From Kushneria marisflavi (GTDB lineage: Bacteria; Pseudomonadota; Gammaproteobacteria; Pseudomonadales; Halomonadaceae): a DNA stretch of 64,000 nucleotides. Location of the stretch: the NCBI RefSeq assembly GCF_002157205.1, contig NZ_CP021358.1, positions 3,596,001 to 3,660,000 of the forward strand. The letters run 5' to 3'. Below, piece after piece: positions 420-16,853 of this stretch; the first letter of the stretch is position 1; the number at the start of each line of letters is the position of its first letter. Under the pieces are notes generated by a model that was given only the letters and a program-made list of their open reading frames with translations, searched no databases and was not told where the DNA came from. A program made the translations under genes and the position numbers.

Positions 420-870
420 GGTGATGATCCCTTTCCGGGGTTTGCGTTGAAATCTTTTGGAGGTGTCGGCAAAACTGTGCCGAAACGCTTTTATATGAAA
501 AATCCTTGATACAATAAATCACAAAAAAAGACGAATCTTGAGCCCTGAAATATCGAATCAGCTGAGGCCAAAAATCGGCATGTTGTTGATTCAAAAAGCG
601 CTATGAAGATGCTGAATTGCCGATATAAAAACTTTTTTAACTAAAATATCATGGGCTTATACATATTTTTGACGCCAGTCTGAAGGTGGCCCGCGCTTAC
701 CGCCTGGCTCATGACATCCTGTCAGCCATGAGTTCCTTTAAATTGTGATGACATCAGCTATAGCCAAGGACAATGCGCGCTGCGGCACAATTTCTTTTCG
801 TTACTCGTTTTACCTTTTGTGTAGTCAAAGTTACTTATTGAAATATCAATTGACCTCGCAGGGGATGGCA
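420..870. other. Intergenic region between flaG and the TupA-like gene
   Basis: No convincing gene. A dyad TCGGCA/TGCCGA (466-471 and 478-483) lies 47-64 bp upstream of flaG; on the minus strand its TGCCGACAC half resembles a sigma-28 -10 element, but a well-spaced TAAA box is missing, so a flagellar promoter here is only suggestive. The stretch from about 600 to 850 is AT-rich and probably holds the promoter of the rightward gene. The open frame from 745 to 870 upstream of the chosen start has no Shine-Dalgarno and no recognisable domain. Confidence 0.4.
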
Positions 871-1881
871 ATGGCGGAATTACACGTGTTCTCAAACGCA
901 AGTCAGGACGCCAAGGCAGTAATGCAGGGCTTTGATGCTGATACAGCAAAGCTCCTCCCTCGAAGGGGGCAGAGCCTGCTGCGCTCGGTGAAAAGGAGTA
1001 TTTCTCGCTGGATACCGGATCGCCTTTATATTGCTCACCGCTACCAGAAGCATTTTGGATTCAGGCCCAACCTGGTCAATCCTGAAACCTTTAATGAAAA
1101 AATATGCTATCGCCGCCTGCATCCCGAGCCCATTTTTTCGCCGCTGAGTGACAAGCTGCTGGTACGTGATTACGTACGTCAGAAGATTGGCAATGAAACC
1201 CTGTTGCCGTTGTATCCAATTTCTCAGCCCTTTACACGGCACGACTATGACAGGCTGCCGAACAGTTTCGTCCTCAAGGCCAATCATGGCTCGGGGTATA
1301 ATCTGGTCGTACGCAACAAGGCCGATTACAGCTATGAGCTGATGCGTCGGCTCAGCGATCACTGGCTGGCCAGCAACTTTTATCGTGACAGCCGAGAGCT
1401 GCATTACCAAAGTATTACGCCTCGGCTAATGTGTGAAAAAATGCTGCTCGATGAGAATGGCAAGATTCCCAAGGACTACAAGTTCTACTGTTTCCGTGCC
1501 GAAGGTCAGGCGCCGAAAGTCTTTATTGAAGTGACACATGACCGCTTCACCGATTTTCACGTCGATTATTATGACCAGGACTGGAATCTTGTGGATGTTG
1601 TCAACGAGCGGTTCAATACTGGCTGTCCTATCGAGAAACCGGCTCAGCTGGATCGGGCCATGAAACTGGCGCTCAAGCTGTCTGAAGGGTTTGGGTTTGC
1701 CCGCGTTGACTTCTATCTAATGCGTGATGCGATCTATTTCGGTGAGATTACCTTTACGCCTACCGGTGGCATGAAAAACTTCCGGTCAGCGGCACATGAT
1801 CGTGCCTGGGGTGAGCTCTTTGACCATCGTCCGATGACAAGGGACTTTGGCTATGAAGACATGGAAGGTAATCGATACTGA
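871..1881 (+). CDS. TupA-like ATP-grasp protein (glycan/teichuronopeptide type)
   Basis: A protein of about 336 residues matching the TupA-like ATP-grasp family, found in polysaccharide and glycopeptide loci and thought to ligate amino acids or similar groups onto glycans. Visible family features: the N-terminal FGFRPNLVNPETFNEKICYR segment, SDKLLVRDYV, the nucleotide-binding LPNSFVLKANHGSGYN segment, the IPKDYKFYCF strand, and the C-terminal GEITFTPTGGM motif that carries the metal-binding Glu. The start at 871 is preferred because AGGGG at 860-864 sits 6 nt upstream; an in-frame ATG at 865 abuts that site and the longer frame from 745 has none. It converges on the diguanylate cyclase gene. 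Substrate is unknown; proximity to flagellin and glycosyltransferase genes makes a surface or flagellar glycan role plausible. Confidence 0.8.
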   Translation: MAELHVFSNASQDAKAVMQGFDADTAKLLPRRGQSLLRSVKRSISRWIPDRLYIAHRYQKHFGFRPNLVNPETFNEKICYRRLHPEPIFSPLSDKLLVRDYVRQKIGNETLLPLYPISQPFTRHDYDRLPNSFVLKANHGSGYNLVVRNKADYSYELMRRLSDHWLASNFYRDSRELHYQSITPRLMCEKMLLDENGKIPKDYKFYCFRAEGQAPKVFIEVTHDRFTDFHVDYYDQDWNLVDVVNERFNTGCPIEKPAQLDRAMKLALKLSEGFGFARVDFYLMRDAIYFGEITFTPTGGMKNFRSAAHDRAWGELFDHRPMTRDFGYEDMEGNRY

Positions 1882-4144: not shown

Positions 4145-6265
4145 TTAACGCAGTAGTGCAAGCACGCTATCAAGTTGCTGGTTGGCTTGTGTCAGTACGG
4201 CCATGCCCGCCTGCTGGGTGATCTGAGCTCGGCTCATGTTGGAGACTTCCACTGCGTAATCAGCGTCCATGATGCGTGAGCGAGCATCCCTCAAGGCGCT
4301 GACGGTATTTCCCTGCTGATCGATAATCGCATTCATGCGGTTTTGTGTGGCACCCAACGTACTGCGCTTGTCGTCAACGCGGGCAATGGCACGGTCCAGT
4401 GCAGCAAGCGGGTCATCCGGAGTCCTGAGGCGAATTTCGGGATTGATTTCGGTCAGTTCGACCGTACTGTGTGTATTGGGTACATCCGTGCTGGCTTGAA
4501 TGTTCATTCGGTAATAGATGATCAGATCACCACTGCCGGTACGTGTCTTGAGCAGCGTGCCCATCTCCTGAGTATTCACCAGTGTTGCTGATCGATAGCC
4601 GGTCGTTCCATCATCGCCATTGGAAGCGCGTAGAAAATATTGTCCGTTATCATCGATGCGCAAGGCATCTTCAACGCGCTGCCCATCCCGGTCGGTATAG
4701 TTTGCTGTTACATTGAGAGGATCGAGCGTAATGGTAGAGGTACCATCTACGGTGGTGCGCTCGGTTGTGATGGCTTTTTCCGGGGAAACGATGGGTGTAT
4801 CCGTGGTGGCATTGGCAATGACCCGAGGCCGGCTGGCAGTGACACTCGCGGGCTCAACCACATAATAGCGTCCCGACTGCTCAAGGTAGTACTGACCATT
4901 GCTGGACTGTGTAAGCGTGGCATTCTTGAAGGATGTCGTATTGCCATCGGCATCAAGATAGCGATGCTGTGCATTATCGATCGGCTGGCTATCAATCTCG
5001 ATGACTGGCTGGGTTGGTGGCGCTGAAGCGGGTTGATCCGAGCTGGCCCTGACGATATAGCCATCAAACGTGCTCTCGACAGTCGCTGAGTAGAACTTGC
5101 CAGTAGTGCTTGTTAGATAATAGTCATCGCCTACCCGGCTCAGGGTCGCACCGTTGACGGGTTGCCCTGAACTGTCGAAATAATCGACATCGTCATTGTT
5201 GAACGCCACACCATTGATGGTTGTGGTCGGTGAGGGCGGCCATATGGCGTCATTGCTTTTTAGCTGTGCATCAATGGCGGCCGGTCGGGTGGTTACGCTG
5301 GCCGGATAATAGCCAGCCTCGGGGCCACTGCCATTTTTAATGAAATAGTTACTGCCCGTAGCGACCAGTTGGCTTTCACCCCCAAATGTATTGCCTTGAC
5401 GATCACGAAGAACGCTGTCCACGTCTTCGATCTGATAGTCCTGATAGCGTGTCACTGGCGCATAGAGCTGTTGACCGACATCAATACGGACCTGGCTGGT
5501 GTCGGTCGCAGTATCGTGTGACGCCGTAACACTGGAAGCGAAATAAACGGTATTGCCGTCACTATCTTCTGCACGTGTATACCAGTTGGCGGGGTAACCG
5601 GTTGATGCGGGAGCGGCCTGCATCAGTGTTGGATTGCTATAACCGGCCGGCAAAATAAAATCACCACTACTGACGGCGATATCCTGTGCGCGACCCGTGA
5701 CGATATTGATATCGGTCACCACGCCGCTGATGCCGGCGACGGTGAAATCAGTTAAACCAAGTTCATCAACGCTGAAGCCGGGGCGGTTGAGATCCACCCC
5801 CAGGGTTTCTCCGTCATTGGCGCCTACCTGTACGCTGACCATACCGGCCGAGCCGTCGAGTAGATTGATGCCGTTAAACTGTGCCTGGGTGTTGAGCCGA
5901 TCAATCTCTTTTAAATTAAGGTTGATTTCCTGCTGGATGGTGTCCTGATCGACCAGCGTAAGCGCACCATTAAGTCCCTGTACGGTGAGTTCGCGAATAC
6001 GCTGCAAGCGATCGTTAACCTGAGAGAGCGCACCTTCAGCCGTCAGAGCCATGGAGGCGCCATCATTGGTGTTGCGCTGCGCCTGCTCTGTACCGCGGAC
6101 CTGAGCTTCCATCCGATTGCCAATCGCAAGCCCTGCGGCATCATCACGTACGGAATTGACACGCTGGCCGCTGGATAACCGTTCGATGGCCTGATTGAGA
6201 GAGCGCTGGCTTTTGTTCAGCTTTTGATTGATGGAAAGCGATGTCGAAGATGATATAGAGAACAT
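4145..6265 (-). CDS. Large flagellin with repeat-rich variable domain
   Basis: A flagellin of 706 residues from the ATG at 6265 (712 from a TTG at 6283). The N-terminal D0/D1 region (to ~residue 160) has [28 protein letters not shown] and [11 protein letters not shown]; the C-terminal ~90 residues contain the conserved helix ending SNMSRAQITQQAG...QLDSVLALLR. Between them lie about 430 variable residues with four or five degenerate ~60-residue units built on a D-x-x-G-N ... YYL ... YY-x-A-x-V pattern. The extreme N-terminus (MFSISSSTSLSINQ) departs from the usual M-x-x-INTN. The ATG at 6265 fits a candidate sigma-28 promoter whose start point would fall near 6291. It differs strongly from the three 300-residue flagellins at 13-17 kb, so it may be a minor or alternative filament protein. 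Confidence 0.9.
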   Translation of the reverse strand: MFSISSSTSLSINQKLNKSQRSLNQAIERLSSGQRVNSVRDDAAGLAIGNRMEAQVRGTEQAQRNTNDGASMALTAEGALSQVNDRLQRIRELTVQGLNGALTLVDQDTIQQEINLNLKEIDRLNTQAQFNGINLLDGSAGMVSVQVGANDGETLGVDLNRPGFSVDELGLTDFTVAGISGVVTDINIVTGRAQDIAVSSGDFILPAGYSNPTLMQAAPASTGYPANWYTRAEDSDGNTVYFASSVTASHDTATDTSQVRIDVGQQLYAPVTRYQDYQIEDVDSVLRDRQGNTFGGESQLVATGSNYFIKNGSGPEAGYYPASVTTRPAAIDAQLKSNDAIWPPSPTTTINGVAFNNDDVDYFDSSGQPVNGATLSRVGDDYYLTSTTGKFYSATVESTFDGYIVRASSDQPASAPPTQPVIEIDSQPIDNAQHRYLDADGNTTSFKNATLTQSSNGQYYLEQSGRYYVVEPASVTASRPRVIANATTDTPIVSPEKAITTERTTVDGTSTITLDPLNVTANYTDRDGQRVEDALRIDDNGQYFLRASNGDDGTTGYRSATLVNTQEMGTLLKTRTGSGDLIIYYRMNIQASTDVPNTHSTVELTEINPEIRLRTPDDPLAALDRAIARVDDKRSTLGATQNRMNAIIDQQGNTVSALRDARSRIMDADYAVEVSNMSRAQITQQAGMAVLTQANQQLDSVLALLR

Positions 6266-6296
6266 GGACGCTATCAAATACAAAAATTGAGATTGT

Positions 6297-6539: not shown

Positions 6540-7432
6540 GGTTCTGTTTGAAAAGTCATGACTGCTGCGCTGCTTCTGTTCACCGAGCAGGAGTCTGTCA
6601 TGGCAGGTTGTTACGAGCTTTCTGGCCAGCGCTGGCACATGATCGAGGATATCGTTTCTACCCCGCGCCGGAATGACCGGCAGATGCTCAACGGCGTTCT
6701 GTGGAGTCTCTGCTAGGAGCGCAGTGGGGTAATCTCCACGAGCGTTCCGGACCATGGAAGACGGTTTATCAGCGCTTTCGACAATAGCAGTGATAACTGC
6801 GCCTTCGACCAGATTCTGGTGCGGCTACATCTTCGTCTACGAGAAGACGTTTATATGGATCTCGGCATCTGGATGGTGGATTCAACCTCCATCAGAGCGA
6901 CCCGGTCGGCCTGAGGTGCCGGTAAAAAGGGAGATCGATATAACCGCTGGATCATGCCTTCGGCCGCAGCCGGGGCGGGCTGACAACGAAAATACACCTG
7001 CTGTGCGATAGCCATGGGCTTCCAATCACCTCCTCTTTATCAGCAGATCAGCGCGCTGACTCGACGCAATTGACTGGGCTACTGGAGCAGGTCCGGTTGC
7101 CGGGTCGTTCCGGCCGTCCTCGCAAGCGCAGCCGCTATCTCGTGGCGGACAAGGGCTACGATAGTGAGGCATTGCGACGCTACTGCACGCGTTACGGCAT
7201 GCGCCCGATCATTCCCCGCCGCCGTATGCATCGCCGGCCGCGCCCGGGGTTACCGCATCAGTTCGACCGGCCAAAATATCGTCAGCGCAATGTGTTAGAG
7301 CGGCTGTTTGGTTGGCTCAAGGAAAAGCGCCGGCTGAATACCCGTTACGACAAGCTGGCAAGCAGCTTCAGGGCCATGGTGACACAGGCCTGTATCGAGC
7401 GCTGCATGAGAGCCGACTTTTCAGACAGAACC
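6540..7432 (+). mobile_element. Degenerate IS5-family insertion sequence (IS427-like)
   Basis: An 893-bp element bounded by near-perfect terminal inverted repeats: GGTTCTGTTTGAAAAGTC at 6540-6557 and its complement with one mismatch at 7415-7432. A TA dinucleotide directly flanks both ends (6538-6539 and 7433-7434), matching the 2-bp target duplication of the IS427 group. It carries one transposase gene broken by several stops and frameshifts. The intact ends with a ruined gene suggest an old insertion, possibly still mobilisable in trans. It sits between the large flagellin and the nucleotidyltransferase gene, whose stop codon is only 8 bp from the right end. Confidence 0.85.
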
Positions 7433-7435
7433 TAA
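6600..7435 (+). pseudogene. IS5-family (DDE) transposase, multiply disrupted
   Basis: Fragments in different frames together spell an IS5/IS427 transposase of about 270 residues. The first runs from ATG 6600 (MAGCYELSGQRWHMIEDIV) to an in-frame TAG at 6714; a middle piece near 6740-6920 reads GPWKTVYQRF and RLHLRLREDVYMDLGIWMVD; another near 6950-7060 reads KIHLLCDSHGLP. The C-terminal third is open from 7070 to 7435 and contains the ADKGYDSEALRRYCTR region and the Glu-bearing NVLERLFGWLKEKRRL motif. Premature stops and at least two frame changes mean no active enzyme is made. Confidence 0.85.
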
Positions 7436-7439
7436 TCTA

Positions 7440-8486
7440 TCAATTTGTATTAAGGTTTAAAAAGTTATCTTTTAGCTTACTTCCCATGATGCCAGGAAAA
7501 GGATGAAGGCCGCTAAGGGGATTTCCAAATGCTTGTTTGTTCCAGTTAAGTAATCTGTAGTGAAATTTTCTTCTTAAGTTAAGTTCTTTATTTAGTTTGC
7601 TTTCCATTAATATACTGCCATTCCCTCGAAAGTAAAAGTCTTCGAGCATCATTCCAATCCACCCTAGTCCTGATATTTCAACCCCATCTATTGACTTATT
7701 AATAGAGATGTTGTTTTTGTTTTGTGACAAACAGTTTTCAATGGTTAATCCATAGTCATAGCTGTAAGAGTTTTTTTGGGGGTTGTAATGGCTGACTTCT
7801 TTTGTTATTTCGCTGCAAATTTTTCTGTAAAGAGTGTAGAAGTCTTTTATTACCCCTTCATGTAAATTCGAAATTTCAGCCTGTTTAACAGGAAAGGGTT
7901 TTTGTTTTTCCCTGATGTCTTCGACTTCTTTAAATGCTGGGTATTCTTCCGAATTGGTTTTTACCCCTCCATTAACGGCTAGTTTCAATGAGTGAGAAAA
8001 GGAGTGTCCTCGCAATAGAACTCCCTGCAAAGAAATATTTTTTGATAATATTTGCCCGATTAGCTGTATGATTCTGAATTGCATAAATTCTGCTGATATC
8101 AATAGGGATTGATGTCTGTTAGGGTATCCTTTATGCATCTGTTTCTTCTTTTCTTTTTGTCTTATGAATAAGAAATCTTTTTCAGGATTTAGAGTAAAAT
8201 ATCCGATTTCTTGAAGTAAGCTTTCATTGAGCAGCATAGGGTCATGAACGAATAGCGTTTTTCCATGCTGATGGTTGCTTGTAAATTTACTGTATCGAGA
8301 CAGAAATTCATCTCCAAGACAAAACTCATTGTCGAAAACAAAAATTATATCAAGATCAGATATCCCTGGCGTTTTTATGTTACCGTTTCGTATTATCTCT
8401 TTTGGTTGAAGAGTGTCAGGAATTTCTCTTTCGATAAAAAGATTAATCTCTTTTAATGCTTCATCGTACTCTTCGATGCCGATCAT
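7440..8486 (-). CDS. Nucleotidyltransferase-fold protein of unknown substrate
   Basis: A 348-residue protein with no family I recognise outside its N-terminus. Residues 34-51 (NGNIKTPGISDLDIIFVF) resemble the signature of polymerase-beta-like nucleotidyltransferases: a Gly turn followed by D44-x-D46, the usual metal-binding pair. The turn is Gly-Asn rather than the common Gly-Ser. The rest is mostly helical and polar; no signal peptide or membrane segment is seen. Its ATG overlaps the stop of the giant glycosyltransferase gene by one base (TAATG), with GGAG about 10 nt upstream, so the two are very likely translationally coupled. The gene is strikingly AT-rich for this genome, pointing to horizontal acquisition. 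A role in modifying the glycan built by the upstream enzyme is an inference. Confidence 0.6.
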   Translation of the reverse strand: MIGIEEYDEALKEINLFIEREIPDTLQPKEIIRNGNIKTPGISDLDIIFVFDNEFCLGDEFLSRYSKFTSNHQHGKTLFVHDPMLLNESLLQEIGYFTLNPEKDFLFIRQKEKKKQMHKGYPNRHQSLLISAEFMQFRIIQLIGQILSKNISLQGVLLRGHSFSHSLKLAVNGGVKTNSEEYPAFKEVEDIREKQKPFPVKQAEISNLHEGVIKDFYTLYRKICSEITKEVSHYNPQKNSYSYDYGLTIENCLSQNKNNISINKSIDGVEISGLGWIGMMLEDFYFRGNGSILMESKLNKELNLRRKFHYRLLNWNKQAFGNPLSGLHPFPGIMGSKLKDNFLNLNTN

Positions 8487-11400
8487 TATTTAAATGCTCC
8501 GTTGATTAGGAAATCAGCTTCTATTTTGTGAGTAATTTCTCTTCTGACAACGTCCTCAAGTATTTCAGAACCTACCTTGGAGAACGTCGTTAAAATGTCT
8601 TGCGAAATAAAAACAGGGTGTTTCGGCTGCCTATATTTCCAAATTTCTCTTATTTCAGATGCTTTAGTAAGAGCTTTTTTCTGATTTTTTGTTAATATCT
8701 TGTTTATTTTTTTAGTTAGGATGGATCGCTTATCTGAAAAATCATTTGTAATTACTTCATAGTGAAGTAGATTGATCATAAAGAATCTGCTTATTATATT
8801 TTTTAGTTCATAAGCGCTTCTTATTTCATTGTTTGTGTCTAAGTTTTTAAAAAATAAGCATAGTTCTGACAGCGTTAAAAAAGCTTCGTCAAGTGAGTTT
8901 CTTGGGGTAGATGAAACCTCTATCTCTTTTTTTGAGAAATTAACGCCTTTCGCCAGAACTTTCAAAGGCATATTGGCTTCTGGATAATAGTTTTTAAGAT
9001 CGAACTCATGGTTAATGAAGCATCCATGATGCCCTAACGGGTCGATATCAAGTATTATTTTGTTGATGTTGGATATTTTTTTGCGCACCCGAGATATACT
9101 TTCTTCAGTGGCCAAGGCCTCGTTTTTTATAAATAAAGAAATATCTACATCACTAAATTCCGTATACCTACGATCTGCCATACTTCCATGAAGTATGGCG
9201 TCAAAAAGAGTTTCATCCACCTCTTCTTGAATAAGATCAAATTTTTCTTTGTAAGCTTTGTTCCAACTGTAACTATTTATGGACGGTATTTTAAAATTTA
9301 CCGTTGCCATATCGCTTTGGAGCTTAAGGTCAAATAGTTCTTTAATGTGTTTAAAATTTTCTTTAGAAATATTGTTAATTTTTTTAATTTCTTCAGAGCA
9401 TGTGTTTTCTGAGGTGACTTTTTTTATTAGAGCTTGCCGTCTAATTTTTTGTATAATGCTTATTTTTCTTTCTTTGTTTGTTTTTGAGGCGTCAAAAAGT
9501 TTATCTCTAGTCTCAATTATTTTGTTTTCTATGCTTTTGTGGGTTGAAGCATTTTTATTATGAATATTTCCATATATTGAAAATAGTCTTTTTATTTTTA
9601 TGTCGTTTTCGCCTTCGGAAATATTTTTATGCCATAGCGTTTCAGCCTGAGTGCTTGGCCAAGTTACAAAACCTATGCGTCCGGTATGTTTGAAGCTATA
9701 GCCGTTTAGGCGCGCCATCACGTAAAGCCATATGTCGTCTGCGTCTGAACAGGCTTCTTTGAAGATTGATTCGTTTGATACATCTTTATGGAAGCAGTTT
9801 GGCGGATAAAGTACCCCTGCACCACTTGTTGGGAAATTAAGTGCATCTGCATCGAATGCACGAGTTGAATTCCACTCCCACTCCTTATAAGGAAGAATCT
9901 CTAATTCCTTGTTCATCTGAATCTTGTGAATCCGGTGTGCGGCAATTTCTTTTTTGCCCGGCTGGGTGGCTTCTACGAGTTCTTCAAGCCAGGTTGGCGG
10001 ATAATAGATATCATCGTCAGCCGTAGCGATGTAGGCTTCGGGCCATTCTTTAAGTGTTGGCACAATTTTTTTGTAGGATCGAATATCTTCACAGTAGTGA
10101 ACTTCAAGACCGCTACTAGCCACTAATGACAAAACATTTTCAGGCAACTTTTCCCTATCGTCCTGTGCAATCCATAAAACAACCCGGTCAGGCGCTACCG
10201 TTTGGGTCAGTAAACTTTGTAGTGTTGCCCATAGTGTTGAAAAGCGCCCTGGATAAGAAGTGAGGGATACTATTAAATCGCCTGGCAAACCATGAAAGCG
10301 TGGTTTGACGGGACGATTAGCCAGCATCATGGCTTGTACCATTGGCTGCCACTGAGTGTCTGCCGACATCAGAGCGCTACCTGCCTCTTTTTCTACGGTA
10401 TCCAGATATTGCTGCTGTTCAGCAGGGCCAGCCAGCAAAGAACAGGCCGCGTCTTGAAGACCGTAAACAGTGTGGAGGAGGAAGGACAGCTTGGTTGCCT
10501 GCCGGTGGTCAAGTGCTGCCATTCTTCCGTGGTCGGGCAGCAGTAGCGCCTGTGCGGAAAGCAATTCAGAAGATGGCTGCCCACTATTGTTCAAGCTCGC
10601 CGGCATAAGGCTGCGATGCTTGAGATCATGCAACCGATAGAATCGAAATCCATTATGGCTGGCCCAACGTTGAACTTCGTCCAGATTGGGCTGACGTTCA
10701 TGTGTGGGTTGAAAGGCCACATTGATTTGAATAAGCAGGCTGGATTTTAATGATTGTTGGCCATGCTCAAGTATGGTCGCGCTGTCGCTCAACTCATCTA
10801 TTACCAGCCAATCCAGACTTGGCAAGCCATCAATATTATCCAGCGCTACCGTATTGAAGGGGAGTCGCGCCAGCACACGCCGACCATCTGTTTCCGTACT
10901 TACGGCCAATGGTTCAAGCAGACTGCTCATGGCAGGATCCAGTGTAGCCTTCAACGTCGTTGACTGACCATCGCCAAGACTATTGTTGGCGTAGTAGTGA
11001 ATACCTTCCCTGCTCGAAGCTGGATTTTTTGTTTCACGACTGGCTGGATCAAAGACCACCAGTTCAAGAGTTTCCTTGCTCAAAAGCTCTTCGATAACAG
11101 GATTGCCCAGCAGGCGAGCGCCGTTATCGATTGCAACAATCTTTCCTTGTAACGGCCAGCTGAAATCAGCTTTTATGTTGTTTTGAAATGAGGGCTGATC
11201 GACTTCAACCGCTGTTATGCTGTCTTCAAAATAGGCTTTGCCCTGCTGATCCAGTGTCAGCGCTGCGGCACTGTTGCCTTCACAATAACGTTGCCAGATA
11301 GCGCGCATGGCCGTTGAAAAGTGTTTTCCGAATCGCTCAGCATCGCATGTTGGGGATTGAATCAAAAATTGACGCAGACAGGCACGAATGACACTCAGGT

Positions 11401-13183
11401 TGGGGATATCCGAGGCCAGTTCGACAACACGCTGACGATATTCATCCCAGCTTTGGACCACAAGTTCCGGCATGCCTGCGTTGATTAGGTGAGTCGCCGA
11501 GTGCCGGCCTGCAAAGGTGGGCCCGGGCAGTGTGACGACAGGCACGCCCATCATGAAAGCTTCACAGGTCGTGAGCCCGCCCGAATAGGGCCAGGTATCG
11601 AGCGCAATATCAACCCGGTTATAGGCATCGAGCAGATCCTTGTGATTTGAAGGACCTTCAAGAATAAGTCGTTCTGCCTCGATGCCATGATTGCCCATAA
11701 CGCGGTATATACGCTCGCAATATTCTGCGCTTTCGTATTGTCCGCTTTTCAAAAATAGTCGGCTATTGGGTAGCTCATTCATCAGCTTTGCCCATTCGCC
11801 TAGCAGTTCAGCATTGATCTTGGCAGGGTTGTTGAAACAACCCAGTGTGATATAGCCATTGCTCATGGCAGGAAGCGCTTTAATAGTAGGGGCGTTTTGG
11901 GCTGGAAAATAGCAGATATAATCATTCGGCAGTCGAATAAGCTTTTCGGTGTACCAATCATCGCTACCTTCAGGAGTTTCATGCTGGTCTGATATCAAGT
12001 AATCAAAACAGGGTAGGCCCATGGTATTGATTAGACCGCCAACCCATTTGACGATGAGTGGGGCAGGTTTAAGCGACATGGTCCGAAGCCGGCTCCCTTC
12101 CCCAAAGCCTGAAAGGTCGATCAGGATATCGATGCCGTCCTGATAAATACGCTCAGCCAGTGCGGTTTGATCAAGATGGCGTACCAAGTTCCATCGTGTA
12201 GCAACCTGCTTAAGTCGCTGAGTTAAAACATCATCTGCGTTATTGGTGCTGTAAAAATGAAGCTCAAAATCCGGCTGAAGATTTTCAAAGCCTGTCAGCA
12301 CCATCTGACCAACCGGATGCATGCGAAACCCTGGTGATACCAGTCCGATACGAATGGTTTTGGTAGCGTCCGATAGGGCAGGCTGATGCGTAAACGCTGT
12401 TACCTCCTGATTGAAATGACTTTCCCATTCGCGAATAGTTCTGAAGATTTTTTCTGCGCTAACTTCAGGGTTGTAATGCATGCAAACCAGTAGGTTAGAA
12501 AAAGCAGTGTCGAAGTCCGGTTCCAGCGATAGCGCCTTGCGGAAAGCAGTCTCTGCTTCGTCAAACTGGCCAAGGTCTTTATAAAGATTGCCTATTTCGT
12601 TTTGGACAAAAGCGTTATCAGGTTCGCTTTTTAGCAATTCTGAAACAGTGTCGAAGGCTTTTTGATAATGGCGGCGCTTGGTATAAATATGACCTCGAAT
12701 AAATAGGCAGGAATTAATACTATACCCTAGTGATTCAGCTTTTAATGCATGTTCAAGAGCATCGTCGTCTTGATCACTCTCAGTTAAAATTTCTGCAAAG
12801 GTGAAATGCCCTTGAGAAAAATTGGGCTCAAGTTTGATTGCTTTCTCTGCAAACTCTAGGGCCGCTAATGGTTCGCCAAGGTCATACCAGACTCGCGCCA
12901 TAATGTGTTGAGTTTGGGCATCCTCAGCGTTGAGTTTGAGTGATTGCTCCAGTGCTTCCTTTGCGGATTCGATATCCCCATTTTTATGTAAACAACTACC
13001 CAATACTTTCCATCCGAAAGCGTCCTTTGGGTAACGCTGGGTCAGGGTCTCTGCGTAACGCTGAGCTTGGGCAAAATCATTGACGTTATAAAACGTCAGA
13101 AACTGTTTCTGCTCTTCCGGCGTGGCTGCTCTGAAAATGGGCTTTTTGCTTTTTTGGATCTGCCGCAGTTTACGCTTGCTCAT
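8486..13183 (-). CDS. Giant TPR / GT41 (SPINDLY-OGT) / FkbM-like / GT-A / nucleotidyltransferase fusion, probable flagellin glycosyltransferase
   Basis: A 1565-residue cytoplasmic protein. Residues ~30-260 are TPR repeats. Residues ~276-640 are a SPINDLY/OGT-type GT41 transferase: RIGLVSPGFRMHPVGQ with the conserved His, the LFLKSGQYES segment, and the diagnostic DTWPYSGGLTTCEA plus LPGPTFAGRHSATHL. Residues ~675-870 weakly resemble an FkbM-type methyltransferase (LIQINVAFQPTHERQPNLDE) but lack a clear SAM-binding glycine motif. Residues ~965-1185 form a GT-A glycosyltransferase with a DDD metal motif at 1056-1058. After a Lys-rich linker, residues ~1325-1565 form a nucleotidyltransferase domain with G1333-S1334 and D1345-x-D1347. 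GT41 enzymes attach GlcNAc-type sugars to Ser/Thr. The gene lies just downstream of three flagellin genes and couples to another nucleotidyltransferase gene. The last ~1.2 kb is much richer in A+T than the rest. Flagellin as substrate is inferred. Confidence 0.85.
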   Translation of the reverse strand: MSKRKLRQIQKSKKPIFRAATPEEQKQFLTFYNVNDFAQAQRYAETLTQRYPKDAFGWKVLGSCLHKNGDIESAKEALEQSLKLNAEDAQTQHIMARVWYDLGEPLAALEFAEKAIKLEPNFSQGHFTFAEILTESDQDDDALEHALKAESLGYSINSCLFIRGHIYTKRRHYQKAFDTVSELLKSEPDNAFVQNEIGNLYKDLGQFDEAETAFRKALSLEPDFDTAFSNLLVCMHYNPEVSAEKIFRTIREWESHFNQEVTAFTHQPALSDATKTIRIGLVSPGFRMHPVGQMVLTGFENLQPDFELHFYSTNNADDVLTQRLKQVATRWNLVRHLDQTALAERIYQDGIDILIDLSGFGEGSRLRTMSLKPAPLIVKWVGGLINTMGLPCFDYLISDQHETPEGSDDWYTEKLIRLPNDYICYFPAQNAPTIKALPAMSNGYITLGCFNNPAKINAELLGEWAKLMNELPNSRLFLKSGQYESAEYCERIYRVMGNHGIEAERLILEGPSNHKDLLDAYNRVDIALDTWPYSGGLTTCEAFMMGVPVVTLPGPTFAGRHSATHLINAGMPELVVQSWDEYRQRVVELASDIPNLSVIRACLRQFLIQSPTCDAERFGKHFSTAMRAIWQRYCEGNSAAALTLDQQGKAYFEDSITAVEVDQPSFQNNIKADFSWPLQGKIVAIDNGARLLGNPVIEELLSKETLELVVFDPASRETKNPASSREGIHYYANNSLGDGQSTTLKATLDPAMSSLLEPLAVSTETDGRRVLARLPFNTVALDNIDGLPSLDWLVIDELSDSATILEHGQQSLKSSLLIQINVAFQPTHERQPNLDEVQRWASHNGFRFYRLHDLKHRSLMPASLNNSGQPSSELLSAQALLLPDHGRMAALDHRQATKLSFLLHTVYGLQDAACSLLAGPAEQQQYLDTVEKEAGSALMSADTQWQPMVQAMMLANRPVKPRFHGLPGDLIVSLTSYPGRFSTLWATLQSLLTQTVAPDRVVLWIAQDDREKLPENVLSLVASSGLEVHYCEDIRSYKKIVPTLKEWPEAYIATADDDIYYPPTWLEELVEATQPGKKEIAAHRIHKIQMNKELEILPYKEWEWNSTRAFDADALNFPTSGAGVLYPPNCFHKDVSNESIFKEACSDADDIWLYVMARLNGYSFKHTGRIGFVTWPSTQAETLWHKNISEGENDIKIKRLFSIYGNIHNKNASTHKSIENKIIETRDKLFDASKTNKERKISIIQKIRRQALIKKVTSENTCSEEIKKINNISKENFKHIKELFDLKLQSDMATVNFKIPSINSYSWNKAYKEKFDLIQEEVDETLFDAILHGSMADRRYTEFSDVDISLFIKNEALATEESISRVRKKISNINKIILDIDPLGHHGCFINHEFDLKNYYPEANMPLKVLAKGVNFSKKEIEVSSTPRNSLDEAFLTLSELCLFFKNLDTNNEIRSAYELKNIISRFFMINLLHYEVITNDFSDKRSILTKKINKILTKNQKKALTKASEIREIWKYRQPKHPVFISQDILTTFSKVGSEILEDVVRREITHKIEADFLINGAFK

Positions 13184-13351: not shown

Positions 13352-14254
13352 TTAACGCAGCAGGGAGAGCACGCCCTGCGTGGTCTGGTTGGCCTGCGCC
13401 AGTACCGAGGTACCGGCCTGTTGCAAAATCTGCGCCTTGGACATGTTCGATACTTCGGTCGCGTAGTCGGCGTCCTCAATGCGAGAACGGGCAGCGCTCA
13501 GGTTAGTCGAGGTAGTGTTGATGTTTTCAATGGCCGACTCGAAACGGTTCTGAACGGCACCCAGATCGCTGCGATTGTTGTCGACTGACTTCAGCTTGTC
13601 ATCCAGAGTTTGCAGAGCCCCGGAGCTCAAGACATCAAAGCCCTGGGTTTCAACTTTCCGATCAGCTGCAGTGATGTTGGCATTGCCAGCTCCGCTGGAT
13701 GCGGTAGTCGTGTACATGTTCCAGCCTGATCCTCCAGTGCTGCCTACGGCACCTTCGGACTGACCGATTTTGATGCTGATGGTTTCGCCATCGTTAGCGC
13801 CGACCTGAATGCTGAAGGAAGTACCAGTACTGCCCGCACTAAAGACATCCGTACCATTGAAAGAAGTATCGGTAGTCACGCGGTTGATCTCTTCCAGACG
13901 CTGGTTGACTTCCTTCTGGATGGAGTCGATGTCGCTGGCAGAGTTGGTACCGTTCTGGGCCTGAACGGTCAGTTCACGAATACGCTGCAGGTTGTCGTTG
14001 ACCTGATCGAGTGCACCTTCGGCCGTCTGGGCCAGTGAGATGCCGTCGTTGGCATTGCGGCTGGCCTGATTCAGACCGGTGACCTGTGAGGTCATGCGGT
14101 TGGCGATCGCCTGACCGGCGGCATCATCCTTGGCACTGTTGATGCGTGAACCGGAGGACAGACGCTCGATGGCGCTGTTCAGGGAGTTCTGTGACTTGTT
14201 CAGGTTTTGCTGAGCGGTCAGCGACAGGGTGTTGGTATTGACGACCATTGCCAT
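13352..14254 (-). CDS. fliC: Flagellin, copy 1 of 3 (identical proteins)
   Basis: The filament subunit, exported by the flagellar type III system and polymerised at the tip. The 300-residue protein starts [20 protein letters not shown], contains [23 protein letters not shown] and [14 protein letters not shown], and ends in the conserved helix [22 protein letters not shown]...GVLSLLR. It is short: little beyond D0/D1, with a Ser/Thr/Gly-rich insert at ~165-205 ([20 protein letters not shown]) that is a good candidate glycosylation region. An AGGA lies 10 nt before the ATG. It has its own sigma-28 promoter and terminator. The protein equals copies 2 and 3, and the flanks match copy 3. Confidence 0.97.
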
Positions 14255-14333
14255 GTTTGCGATTTCCTATACGTGTTCTAAAAGGAAGCGGCTCTGTGAG
14301 CCTGTCTTTCGCGGCACCTGCCGCCTGATGCAG

Positions 14334-14361
14334 TTATCGGTGCTGCGTGATCATTTCTTTA
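14334..14361 (-). promoter_or_regulatory. Sigma-28 (FliA) promoter of flagellin copy 1
   Basis: TAAAGAAA, 12 nt, ACCGATAA on the minus strand, close to TAAAGTTT-N11-GCCGATAA. It predicts a leader of ~74 nt. Two stem-loops conserved in all copies lie in that leader (14311-14324 and 14290-14302). Confidence 0.8.
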
Positions 14362-14558
14362 GGCGCTTCCGGAAAGTTTTGTACCTTCCCGGTTAAGGTG
14401 ATTTCTATTCGGGATCACCCATCCCTGCACACTGCCTGAGCAGTTCATCGTGCTTGCAAACCTATTAACGACAAGAGAGAGAAAACGCTTGAGTACAAAC
14501 GCTAAAAATTTTGGCTTTTCAATTTTTAAGGGAAACGAAAGAGAGGGTGATCGGGAAC

Positions 14559-14587
14559 AAAAAAAGCCGGCATAAGCCGGCTTTTTC
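14559..14587 (-). terminator. Rho-independent terminator of flagellin copy 2
   Basis: Minus-strand hairpin AAAGCCGGC/GCCGGCTTT followed by a T run, about 22 bp past the stop. Its stem is shorter than those of copies 1 and 3. Confidence 0.85.
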
Positions 14588-14608
14588 ACTGATCTACTTA
14601 AGGCGCCA

Positions 14609-15511
14609 TTAACGCAGCAGGGAGAGAACGCCCTGCGTGGTCTGGTTGGCCTGCGCCAGTACCGAGGTACCGGCCTGTTGCAAAATCTGCGCCTTGGACA
14701 TGTTCGATACTTCGGTCGCGTAGTCGGCGTCCTCAATGCGAGAACGGGCAGCGCTCAGGTTAGTCGAGGTAGTGTTGATGTTTTCAATGGCCGACTCGAA
14801 ACGGTTCTGAACGGCACCCAGATCGCTGCGATTGTTGTCGACTGACTTCAGCTTGTCATCCAGAGTTTGCAGAGCCCCGGAGCTCAAGACATCAAAGCCC
14901 TGGGTTTCAACTTTCCGATCAGCTGCAGTGATGTTGGCATTGCCAGCTCCGCTGGATGCGGTAGTCGTGTACATGTTCCAGCCTGATCCTCCAGTGCTGC
15001 CTACGGCACCTTCGGACTGACCGATTTTGATGCTGATGGTTTCGCCATCGTTAGCGCCGACCTGAATGCTGAAGGAAGTACCAGTACTGCCCGCACTAAA
15101 GACATCCGTACCATTGAAAGAAGTATCGGTAGTCACGCGGTTGATTTCTTCCAGACGCTGGTTGACTTCCTTCTGGATGGAGTCGATGTCGCTGGCAGAG
15201 TTGGTACCGTTCTGGGCCTGAACGGTCAGTTCACGAATACGCTGCAGGTTGTCGTTGACCTGATCGAGTGCACCTTCGGCCGTCTGGGCCAGTGAGATGC
15301 CGTCGTTGGCATTGCGGCTGGCCTGATTCAGACCGGTGACCTGTGAGGTCATGCGGTTGGCGATCGCCTGACCGGCGGCATCATCCTTGGCACTGTTGAT
15401 GCGTGAACCGGAGGACAGACGCTCGATGGCGCTGTTCAGGGAGTTCTGTGACTTGTTCAGGTTTTGCTGAGCGGTCAGCGACAGGGTGTTGGTATTGACG
15501 ACCATTGCCAT
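14609..15511 (-). CDS. fliC: Flagellin, copy 2 of 3 (identical proteins)
   Basis: Encodes the same 300-residue flagellin as its two neighbours; a silent change (GAC versus GAA-type codon context near 15145) distinguishes its DNA from copy 1. Unlike the coding part, its distal upstream sequence (beyond about 15620) and its downstream sequence differ from copies 1 and 3. This pattern indicates that the coding part is being kept uniform by gene conversion or strong selection while the flanks drift. It has its own sigma-28 promoter, leader hairpins and terminator, and AGGA 10 nt before ATG. Confidence 0.97.
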
Positions 15512-15590
15512 GTTTGCGATTTCCTATACGTGTTCTAAAAGGAAGCGGCTCTGTGAGCCTGTCTTTCGCGGCACTTGCCGCCTGATGCAG

Positions 15591-15618
15591 TTATCGGTAC
15601 TGCGTGATCTTTTCTTTA
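15591..15618 (-). promoter_or_regulatory. Sigma-28 (FliA) promoter of flagellin copy 2
   Basis: Minus strand: TAAAGAAA, 12-nt spacer, ACCGATAA; the same elements as copies 1 and 3 although sequence further upstream has diverged, so the promoter is under selection. A leader hairpin GCGGCA/TGCCGC is at 15568-15581. Confidence 0.8.
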
Positions 15619-15904
15619 GCTGTTTCAGGAATTTTTGCTCTTCCTGATGAAGTGGTTACAGCTTGGGTCCACTTGTTCCTGCACGCTGCGTAACAGGGTC
15701 ACCGTGCTTGTAACTTCATTAACGGCTCAAAGCAGGAATTGCTTTAGTTCCAAGGATTGATTTTTGCTGACGGTTTTCGACAAGTGGTTTAGCTGTGCTG
15801 AGGCAATGGGCAAGTCATAAAAGGCCGGAGCGCACAAAAGAAGGAGGAGATAAAGGGGGCACCGGCAAATAAAAAGCCCTGAAGTGCTACCATCAGACAA
15901 AAAG

Positions 15905-15931
15905 AAAAGGGCCGGCATGAGCCGGCCCTTT
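15905..15931 (-). terminator. Rho-independent terminator of flagellin copy 3
   Basis: Minus-strand hairpin AAGGGCCGGC/GCCGGCCCTT with TTTT, identical to the copy 1 terminator except for one loop base. Confidence 0.85.
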
Positions 15932-15950
15932 CCATTTGTTTCTGAAACCG

Positions 15951-16853
15951 TTAACGCAGCAGGGAGAGCACGCCCTGCGTGGTCTGGTTGGCCTGCGCCA
16001 GTACCGAGGTACCGGCCTGTTGCAAAATCTGCGCCTTGGACATGTTCGATACTTCGGTCGCGTAGTCGGCGTCCTCAATGCGAGAACGGGCAGCGCTCAG
16101 GTTAGTCGAGGTAGTGTTGATGTTTTCAATGGCCGACTCGAAACGGTTCTGAACGGCACCCAGATCGCTGCGATTGTTGTCGACTGACTTCAGCTTGTCA
16201 TCCAGAGTTTGCAGAGCCCCGGAGCTCAAGACATCAAAGCCCTGGGTTTCAACTTTCCGATCAGCTGCAGTGATGTTGGCATTGCCAGCTCCGCTGGATG
16301 CGGTAGTCGTGTACATGTTCCAGCCTGATCCTCCAGTGCTGCCTACGGCACCTTCGGACTGACCGATTTTGATGCTGATGGTTTCGCCATCGTTAGCGCC
16401 GACCTGAATGCTGAAGGAAGTACCAGTACTGCCCGCACTAAAGACATCCGTACCATTGAAAGAAGTATCGGTAGTCACGCGGTTGATCTCTTCCAGACGC
16501 TGGTTGACTTCCTTCTGGATGGAGTCGATGTCGCTGGCAGAGTTGGTGCCGTTCTGGGCCTGAACGGTCAGTTCACGAATGCGCTGCAGGTTGTCGTTGA
16601 CCTGATCGAGTGCACCTTCGGCCGTCTGGGCCAGTGAGATGCCGTCGTTGGCATTGCGGCTGGCCTGATTCAGACCGGTGACCTGTGAGGTCATGCGGTT
16701 GGCGATCGCCTGACCGGCGGCATCATCCTTGGCACTGTTGATGCGTGAACCGGAGGACAGACGCTCGATGGCGCTGTTCAGGGAGTTCTGTGACTTGTTC
16801 AGGTTTTGCTGAGCGGTCAGCGACAGGGTGTTGGTATTGACGACCATTGCCAT
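15951..16853 (-). CDS. fliC: Flagellin, copy 3 of 3 (identical proteins)
   Basis: Third copy of the 300-residue flagellin, first in line next to fliA and transcribed away from it. A few silent differences from copy 1 are visible (for example near 16548 and 16580). Its 204-bp upstream block (16854-17057) and its downstream flank match those of copy 1, so copies 1 and 3 derive from a more recent duplication or conversion than copy 2. It has its own sigma-28 promoter, leader hairpins and terminator. Redundant identical genes raise flagellin dosage. Confidence 0.97.

What the first reader, a model, noticed from the sequence alone, without database searches (positions are those of the whole stretch)
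8486..13183. Giant four-enzyme fusion beside flagellins: TPR-GT41-(FkbM-like)-GT-A-nucleotidyltransferase
One 1565-residue protein appears to hold a SPINDLY/OGT transferase (DTWPYSGGLTTCEA at ~530), a degenerate FkbM-like region (~675-870), a GT-A transferase with DDD at 1056-1058, and a nucleotidyltransferase with G1333-S1334...D1345-x-D1347. GT41 enzymes start O-glycans on Ser/Thr; the following domains could extend and cap the sugar. The gene sits 69 bp from the flagellin terminator. I know no described flagellin-modifying enzyme with this full set. The domain calls are from motif reading; the link to flagellin is inference.
Basis: partly seen in the sequence, partly recalled or inferred. 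Interest (0 to 1): 0.87.

Follow-up and report, generated by a model that had tools for sequence, protein, structure and literature searches.

The report
Flagellin sugar-transferase with swapped nucleotidyltransferase cap
Beside its flagellin genes this bacterium has one very large protein that joins several sugar-building enzymes in a row; its tail, together with the next gene, is a pair of nucleotide-transferring enzymes that elsewhere sits in surface-sugar gene clusters of many bacteria and some archaea, so the flagellum may carry an unusual, perhaps nucleotide-tagged, sugar.

Summary
Confirmed: one intact 1565-aa gene (minus strand, 8486-13183) directly downstream of three identical flagellins: TPR-GT41, an FkbM-derived degraded domain, a GT-A transferase (DDD1056-1058) and a Pol-beta-type nucleotidyltransferase (NTase; G1333-S1334, D1345, D1347, D1381). 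The flagellin link holds: all 16 close GT41 homologues fetched lie within 3.5 kb of a flagellin; of four remote ones (28-31% identity) only one does. Correction: it belongs to a modular family whose C-terminal "cap" is swapped. The NTase cap is rare (3 of 60 capped proteins; 1 of 250 family genomes) and lies in low-GC DNA (32%) that starts at the GT-A/cap boundary, runs through the next gene and ends 4 bases from a transposase remnant. New: the cap ("A") and the next gene ("B", no significant Pfam match) are a conserved pair: B lies within 2 kb of A in 35 of 38 A loci of bacteria and archaea by a strict profile, mostly in polysaccharide clusters, and once beside flagellin and a separate TPR-GT41 gene. 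Most likely the protein starts and extends a flagellin glycan and A, with B, nucleotidylates or phospho-decorates it. The chemistry is inferred; no structure could be predicted.

The parts
8486..13183 (-). 1565-aa modular protein (P0001): TPR-GT41, X (FkbM-derived), GT-A, NTase-A cap
12479..13096 (-). TPR repeats, residues about 30-235; likely flagellin-binding by analogy with FlmG (inference)
11273..12400 (-). GT41 catalytic region, residues about 262-637; H289 and K455 align with the OGT His and Lys that I recall as catalytic
10409..11206 (-). X domain, residues 660-925: FkbM methyltransferase homologue with a degraded motif (IDNGAR at 685-690)
9569..10303 (-). GT-A glycosyltransferase, residues 961-1205; DDD1056-1058; weak match to KfiA and heparosan synthase B
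8489..9568 (-). NTase-A cap, residues 1206-1565, GC 0.318; H1332-G-S1334 ... S1344-D1345-x-D1347 ... D1381-P-x-x-H-H-G1387, K1461, W1515
9023..9193 (-). core motifs of NTase-A (residues 1331-1387)
7440..8486 (-). NTase-B (P0002), 348 aa, start overlaps the stop of P0001 (TAATG); G35 ... P40-G-I-S43-D44-x-D46 ... H81; GC 0.347
7440..9571 (-). low-GC cassette (cap A + gene B) whose upstream edge coincides with the GT-A/cap boundary
7070..7435 (+). transposase remnant (DDE domain), ending 4 bases from gene B; a further piece at 6558-6716 matches a transposase family only weakly (E 0.019); related copies elsewhere in the genome at 78-80% identity
13307..13332 (-). terminator-like stem between flagellin and P0001
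13352..14254 (-). flagellin (300 aa), product identical to the next two
14609..15511 (-). flagellin, identical product
15951..16853 (-). flagellin, identical product
4145..6283 (-). fourth flagellin (712 aa, long central insertion), beyond the cassette and the transposase remnant

Best explanation
P0001 is a cytoplasmic flagellin-modifying assembly protein. The TPRs bind flagellin, GT41 puts the first sugar on Ser/Thr, the GT-A domain adds a second sugar, and the C-terminal Pol-beta-type NTase (A), working with the paralogue B encoded by the overlapping next gene, transfers a nucleoside monophosphate (or a phospho-group via a nucleotide) to the end of the glycan. X is a degraded FkbM-methyltransferase relic used as a spacer or binding domain. 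The A+B cassette was acquired laterally from a surface-glycan system and replaced another cap at the GT-A boundary. SHOWN by sequence: domain order, flagellin adjacency, variety of caps, low-GC cassette, the conserved A-B pair and its glycan-cluster context. INFERRED: lateral acquisition, flagellin as substrate, order of reactions, NMP transfer to sugar, A catalytic and B accessory (B keeps DxD but has no invariant third acid).
For: GT41 match to SPINDLY/OGT structures (best stretch 82-637). Flagellin within 3.5 kb of the GT41 gene in 16 of 16 regions with a close homologue, same strand, directly upstream within 1.05 kb in 15. Similarity to P0001 ends at residues 1200-1225 in 51 of 62 homologues whose match passes 1000; different caps in the family, a sulfotransferase cap after the GT-A in the same genus. 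GC: GT-A 0.438, cap 0.318, gene B 0.347, window 0.532; transposase remnant next to gene B. NTase motifs conserved in 34 A sequences with three invariant acidic positions. A-B pairing: 35 of 38 loci at E <= 0.02 (31 at E <= 1e-3; one of them, L045, was in the profile), no hit elsewhere among the 1845 ORFs searched, 911 of them in those loci. A and B are remote paralogues (hhalign 91%, E 1e-6). Glycan context: flippase or GT4 homologue in 33 of 38 A loci against 3 of 20 flagellar background regions; 6 of the 33 supplied the profiles, so 27 of 32 independently. Independent flagellar case L045: A, B, TPR-GT41 and flagellin near each other as separate genes.
Against: Donor sugars and the nucleotide are unknown. 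Remote GT41 homologues (28-31%) have a flagellin nearby in only 1 of 4 regions. A terminator-like stem separates the gene from the flagellin. NTase A+B next to flagellin was found only in the window and L045; no flagellin in the other 37 A loci and B in 1 of 142 genomes of L045's order, itself. Pfam score of the NTase is below cut-off in the window protein. The Pol-beta fold also serves toxins, RNA-tailing and signalling enzymes (recalled); weak matches to defence NTases exist. In ten of the 38 loci 742-1612 bp lie between A and B. The genes next to P0004 and P0044 could not be read.
Confidence: 0.5

Rival explanations
1. A (with B) makes a nucleotide-activated small molecule (such as a CDP-linked alcohol or amino acid) that another enzyme then transfers; the fusion only channels it, and the final glycan carries no nucleotide.
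For: Known phospho-flagellin glycans are proposed to use an NTase to make CDP-threonine and a separate phosphotransferase (PMC10714395, PMC11833859, passages read). P0026 has a CDP-glycerol glycerophosphotransferase as cap on a related scaffold.
Against: CD0242 was modelled on GDP-mannose pyrophosphorylase, a different fold from Pol-beta NTases (recalled). By reading, no phosphotransferase is among the ORFs of 200 aa or more next to the window pair (they were not all scanned), and no such Pfam family was hit among the neighbours scanned in seven A loci.
Confidence: 0.25
2. The cap is ornamental: a recent insertion of A+B into a working flagellin transferase, with the C-terminal part inactive or used for something unrelated.
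For: Very low GC and a transposase remnant alongside; cap absent in 249 of 250 family genomes, nine of the same genus among them; 7 of 10 same-genus genomes lack a GT41 match altogether.
Against: The motif residues of A and the DxD of B are intact, as are the frame and the TAATG overlap; the same GT-A + NTase fusion exists in P0004 and P0044.
Confidence: 0.13
3. A-B is a toxin-antitoxin or defence NTase pair that landed beside the flagellin by chance.
For: Weak matches of A to MntA (0.011), to PADLOC candidates (7.3e-5 and weaker for the window protein) and to CdnD (0.87).
Against: No HEPN match for the B proteins scanned; flippase or GT4 genes in 33 of 38 A loci; fused in frame to a glycosyltransferase in three proteins with different N-terminal parts.
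Confidence: 0.04
4. P0001 modifies something other than flagellin (another surface protein or a polysaccharide).
For: GT41 enzymes have varied targets (recalled); A-B pairs elsewhere lie in polysaccharide clusters; 3 of 4 remote GT41 homologues are not near a flagellin.
Against: Flagellin adjacency in 16 of 16 regions with a close homologue, in 10 genera; FlmG precedent of TPR binding to flagellin.
Confidence: 0.08

Closest known systems
FlmG, Caulobacter flagellin O-glycosyltransferase (PMC7591256; passages read)
   Same: Soluble TPR domain plus GT-B transferase; TPR binds flagellin; flagellin is the substrate.
   Different: 596 residues with one transferase domain, requires pseudaminic acid; no GT-A, X or NTase described in the passages.
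GT41 enzymes with fused methyltransferase domains in enterobacterial flagellin glycosylation islands (PMC4875605; passages read)
   Same: SPINDLY/OGT-type GT41 in flagellin loci, fused to methyltransferase domains; low conservation between islands.
   Different: The passages read mention no GT-A plus NTase and no partner NTase gene; the terms fusion, nucleotidyl and modular did not occur in that text.
PA1091 (FgtA) of P. aeruginosa PAO1 b-type flagellin (PMC11833859; abstract and passages read)
   Same: One polypeptide is assigned both a flagellin glycosyltransferase and a phosphotransferase activity; a neighbouring gene (PA1090) is a homologue of the NTase CD0242.
   Different: GT2 plus CD0244-type phosphotransferase, not GT41 + GT-A + Pol-beta NTase; CD0242 was modelled on GDP-mannose pyrophosphorylase (PMC10714395, passages).
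Pol-beta-type NTases that put NMP on small molecules or proteins (aminoglycoside NTases, GlnD/GlnE, the DrrA adenylyltransferase; recalled, with weak matches)
   Same: G-S ... D-x-D motif and a third acid.
   Different: A has an additional invariant D-P-x-x-H-H-G motif and a B partner.

Membership tests
GT41 (SPINDLY/OGT) | TPRs followed by GT41 catalytic region | tested here: met
   Pfam 2.4e-38; phmmer to SPINDLY 3.7e-97, best stretch 82-637
GT41 (SPINDLY/OGT) | catalytic His and Lys (identity recalled) aligned | tested here: met
   H289 (FRMHPVG) and K455 (NPAKIN) align with His and Lys of the human OGT and SPINDLY segments
GT41 (SPINDLY/OGT) | UDP-GlcNAc or GDP-Fuc donor | not testable with these tools
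   needs enzymology
FlmG-type flagellin transferase | linked to flagellin genes | tested here: met
   window gene itself; 16 of 16 close homologues within 3.5 kb, 1 of 4 remote ones
FlmG-type flagellin transferase | binds and modifies flagellin | not testable with these tools
   needs two-hybrid test and mass spectrometry
FkbM methyltransferase (X domain) | match to PF05050 | tested here: not met
   window X: 0 families; 4 of 18 X members match
FkbM methyltransferase (X domain) | homology to a PF05050 domain | tested here: met
   aligned at 26-28% with L030 and L033 copies that match PF05050 at 5.4e-24 and 2e-21; match of P0001 to the G042 copy E 9e-23; but hhalign with the single P0005 FkbM segment had a probability of only 4.6%
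GT-A glycosyltransferase | DxD motif and GT2-type profile | tested here: met
   DDD1056-1058 invariant in the 4 sequences of A6; Glycos_transf_2 23.5 bits at cut-off 23.3
GT-A glycosyltransferase | GT-A fold | not tested
   structure prediction busy, then switched off
Pol-beta NTase superfamily (A) | hG[GS] ... DxD plus third acid | tested here: met
   G1333, S1334, D1345, D1381 in 34 of 34; 1347 is D in 31 and E in 3; fold not tested
Pol-beta NTase superfamily (B) | G ... DxD plus third acid | tested here: inconclusive
   G35, D44, D46 in 32 of 32, but no invariant third acid; best is position 133, acidic in 88%
PA1091-type GT + phosphotransferase | CD0244-type phosphotransferase cap | tested here: not met
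   cap matches only NTase families; a PF04464 cap occurs in P0026, not in P0001
MntA-HEPN toxin-antitoxin | HEPN partner gene | tested here: not met
   B and eight relatives match no Pfam family significantly

The most novel reading that the evidence does not exclude
A-B is an undescribed two-component enzyme that nucleotidylates glycans: a catalytic Pol-beta NTase (A) with a paralogous partner (B) adds NMP to surface polysaccharides in bacteria and archaea, and in this organism it has been grafted onto a GT41 assembly line so that the flagellar filament carries nucleotide-capped O-glycans.
Probability: 0.3. Interest if true: 0.85.

Novelty: new variant of a known kind. Interest (0 to 1): 0.62.

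Why it matters
If true, bacteria build flagellin glycans with single-polypeptide assembly lines whose last module is exchanged like a cassette, a route to fast change of surface chemistry. The NTase pair would add a new type of glycan decoration (nucleotidyl), and gives a testable function to a gene family (B) that has no significant Pfam match in nine members scanned and no convincing NCBIfam match in 32, yet sits close to A in bacteria and archaea.

Tried and rejected
Rejected or weakened: (a) artefact or frameshift fusion: the ORF is intact in a one-contig genome and GT-A + NTase recurs in P0004 and P0044. (b) B as an orphan: the word-based protein search found no relative and the family search none outside the window genome among 250, but a profile found it near A in most loci. 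(c) Later rounds of the iterated B profile took in an A protein (L071), so counts are quoted from the un-iterated two-sequence profile. It contains the L045 protein, so 34 of 37 loci are independent; four of the 35 hits are weak (E 0.003-0.014: L065, L056, L077, L058); L073, L080 and L081 fail it, and the iterated profile sees B there only inside the A protein. (d) A/B distance correlation r = 0.887, 0 of 2000 permutations, is not used as proof of interaction because shared descent alone can give it. (e) hhalign of X with a single FkbM sequence was insignificant. (f) Search for more flagellin-linked pairs in the order of L045: 1 of 142 genomes, itself; no flagellin in the other 37 A loci with two flagellin queries. 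(g) Plasmid search with B and phage search with A: no match. (h) Rfam on the window: nothing at gathering score. (i) PDB profile search with B: nothing useful; with X: nothing.

Limits: the 69 proteins (P0001 included) were chosen by similarity to residues 640-1565, and only 7991 candidates were scored. The cap grouping is single-linkage; its largest group (39) mixes methyltransferase and sulfotransferase caps, and at least one cap (L023) holds both. The 38 A loci were found through one motif pattern, so A proteins without it are missed. The flagellar background regions (n = 20) are not a random genomic background. NTase cap and B were sought in 250 family genomes, the core in 275. In L036 the flagellin is seen only as two fragments.
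Full report
OBSERVATION. The region holds one open frame of 1565 codons on the minus strand (8486-13183), in a single-contig genome. The start codon lies 168 bp after the stop of a flagellin that has two upstream copies with identical products; a terminator-like stem lies between, about 120 bp from the start codon, not 69.

DOMAINS. Residues 30-235 are TPRs and about 262-637 a GT41 domain, closest among solved structures to SPINDLY (3.7e-97), then a bacterial TPR protein (5djs) and OGT. H289 and K455 align with the OGT residues I recall as catalytic. Residues 961-1205 are a GT-A transferase: DDD1056-1058 is invariant in the four-sequence alignment A6, the GT2 profile just passes its cut-off, and the best solved relative is KfiA at 3e-4. 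Residues 1206-1565 carry a Pol-beta-type nucleotidyltransferase (NTase-A). Single-profile support is weak (24.1 bits, cut-off 26.9), but an alignment of 34 sequences shows invariant G1333, S1334, S1344, D1345, D1381, P1382, H1385, H1386, G1387, P1406 and K1461, with D or E at 1347.

FLAGELLIN LINK. Among 97 genomes searched as relatives, the 16 other genomes with a close GT41 match (39-73% identity in that call) were taken with about 20 kb (15 kb in one) around it. All 16 regions, from 10 genera, hold a flagellin within 3.5 kb of the GT41 gene; in 15 it is the same-strand upstream neighbour, its N-terminal match within 1.05 kb. Of four further regions taken for X or GT-A alone, three also hold a flagellin and one (L042, GT-A only) does not. 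The four genomes with remote GT41 matches (28-31%) were fetched later: one region holds a flagellin, three do not. So the link belongs to this close family, not to GT41 proteins in general.

A MODULAR FAMILY. Similarity to P0001 stops between residues 1200 and 1225 in 51 of 62 homologues whose match passes residue 1000. Of 71 proteins compared, P0001 included, 65 have the GT-A, 38 have GT41 + X + GT-A, and 60 have a cap of at least 80 residues; the caps fall into nine single-linkage groups, the largest mixed, and the NTase group has three members: P0001, P0004 (GT4-type N-terminus instead of GT41) and P0044 (no X). Other caps in the family match sulfotransferases, FkbM and other methyltransferases, GT2 and CDP-glycerol glycerophosphotransferase. 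In the same genus, G002 has a sulfotransferase cap and G007 only TPR-GT41; the other seven have no GT41 match. P0003 of Larsenimonas is 70-97% identical to P0001 per 40-residue block over residues 521-1160 (one block, 641-680, at 50%) but 20-47% before 360 and without clear similarity after ~1240, which suggests recombination of modules. X or GT-A at E <= 1e-40 occurs in 110 of 275 family genomes; the NTase cap in 1 of 250 and gene B in 1 of 250, the window genome itself in both cases.

THE CASSETTE. GC falls from 0.438 in the GT-A to 0.318 in the cap and 0.347 in the next gene, against 0.532 for the window; the drop coincides with the module boundary. The next gene (B, 7440-8486) overlaps the stop of P0001 (TAATG). 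Four bases beyond B ends a transposase remnant (DDE_Tnp_1_2, 2.8e-14), with partial relatives elsewhere in the genome. Acquisition by a mobile element is inference.

THE A-B PAIR. An alignment of NTase-A found 38 loci in genome contigs (record titles name Bacteroidota, Planctomycetota, Proteobacteria, Spirochaetes, archaea and others). A profile made only from P0002 and its L045 relative finds a B protein within 2 kb of A, or in the same protein, in 35 of 38 loci and nowhere else in the 1845 ORFs searched. One of the 35 (L045) was in the profile, and four have E above 1e-3. In ten loci 742-1612 bp lie between A and B. L080-L082 encode A in 609-610-aa proteins that also match B (L080 and L081 only with the iterated profile). 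B has invariant G35, P40, S43, D44, D46 and H81 in 32 sequences, with no invariant third acid. A and B profiles align over the NTase core (91%, E 1e-6), so they are probably remote paralogues. Nine B proteins were scanned against Pfam (P0002, L055 in 42, L059, L069 and L066 in 43, L057, L072 and L045 in 44, L083 in 102): no significant match. NCBIfam gave nothing convincing among 32 (best 0.039). Flippase or GT4 homologues lie within the held DNA of 33 of 38 A loci (27 of 32 without the six that supplied the profiles), against 3 of 20 flagellar regions; Pfam scans of neighbours in seven such loci show flippases, GT4, O-antigen ligase, a sulfotransferase and methyltransferases. In L045, an alphaproteobacterial MAG, A and B stand together near a separate TPR-GT41 gene (34% to P0001) and a flagellin, in what I read as a flagellar gene cluster. 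Of the 30 other loci with both genes aligned, L045 is nearest to the window for A and for B (37% and 32%; next best 23% and 21%); P0004 is as near for A (38%). So the window shows as one fusion what L045 has as separate genes.

MECHANISM. The simplest reading is a flagellin assembly line: bind, prime, extend, cap. That A transfers NMP to the glycan follows from what Pol-beta-type enzymes are known to do (recalled), not from a test. The main rival is that A-B makes an activated donor, as proposed for CDP-threonine in C. difficile and P. aeruginosa; that NTase was modelled on GDP-mannose pyrophosphorylase. Both predict a phospho-containing glycan and can be separated by mass.

PRIOR ART. FlmG, GT41-methyltransferase fusions in enterobacterial flagellin islands and PA1091 show that the kind is known. 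Paper searches with flagellin, GT41, SPINDLY, tetratricopeptide, nucleotidyltransferase, AMPylation, FkbM, sulfotransferase, fusion and Halomonas among the terms listed no paper, by title and abstract start, on a flagellin enzyme with an NTase cap or on a paired glycan NTase. Only open PMC papers were searched, some lists were capped (12 of 142 papers shown, 15 of 307, 10 of 56, 12 of 16), and only four papers were opened, in passages.

Noticed in passing
window 745-1881 (+): TupA-like ATP-grasp gene (PF14305, 1.4e-44); P0066, a homologue of P0001's GT-A domain, lists the same Pfam domain.
   Followed up: partly
window 4145-6283 (-): A fourth, much longer flagellin (712 aa) with a large central insertion and a TTG start, on the far side of the cassette.
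   Followed up: no
window 13352-16853 (-): Three flagellin genes with identical 300-aa products in tandem; each has the same small inverted repeat upstream.
   Followed up: no
L083:4980-6883: An A-B NTase pair on an 84-kb contig of the viral collection; could be a virus, a prophage or a mis-sorted contig.
   Followed up: partly
L030:10743-11492 and L033:10447-11199: Proteins with both a degraded X and an intact FkbM domain in tandem, which suggests that X arose by duplication and decay.
   Followed up: partly
L039, L040, L041: X also occurs in proteins beside flagellin that have no GT41 match; in L039 the N-terminal part has TPRs.
   Followed up: partly
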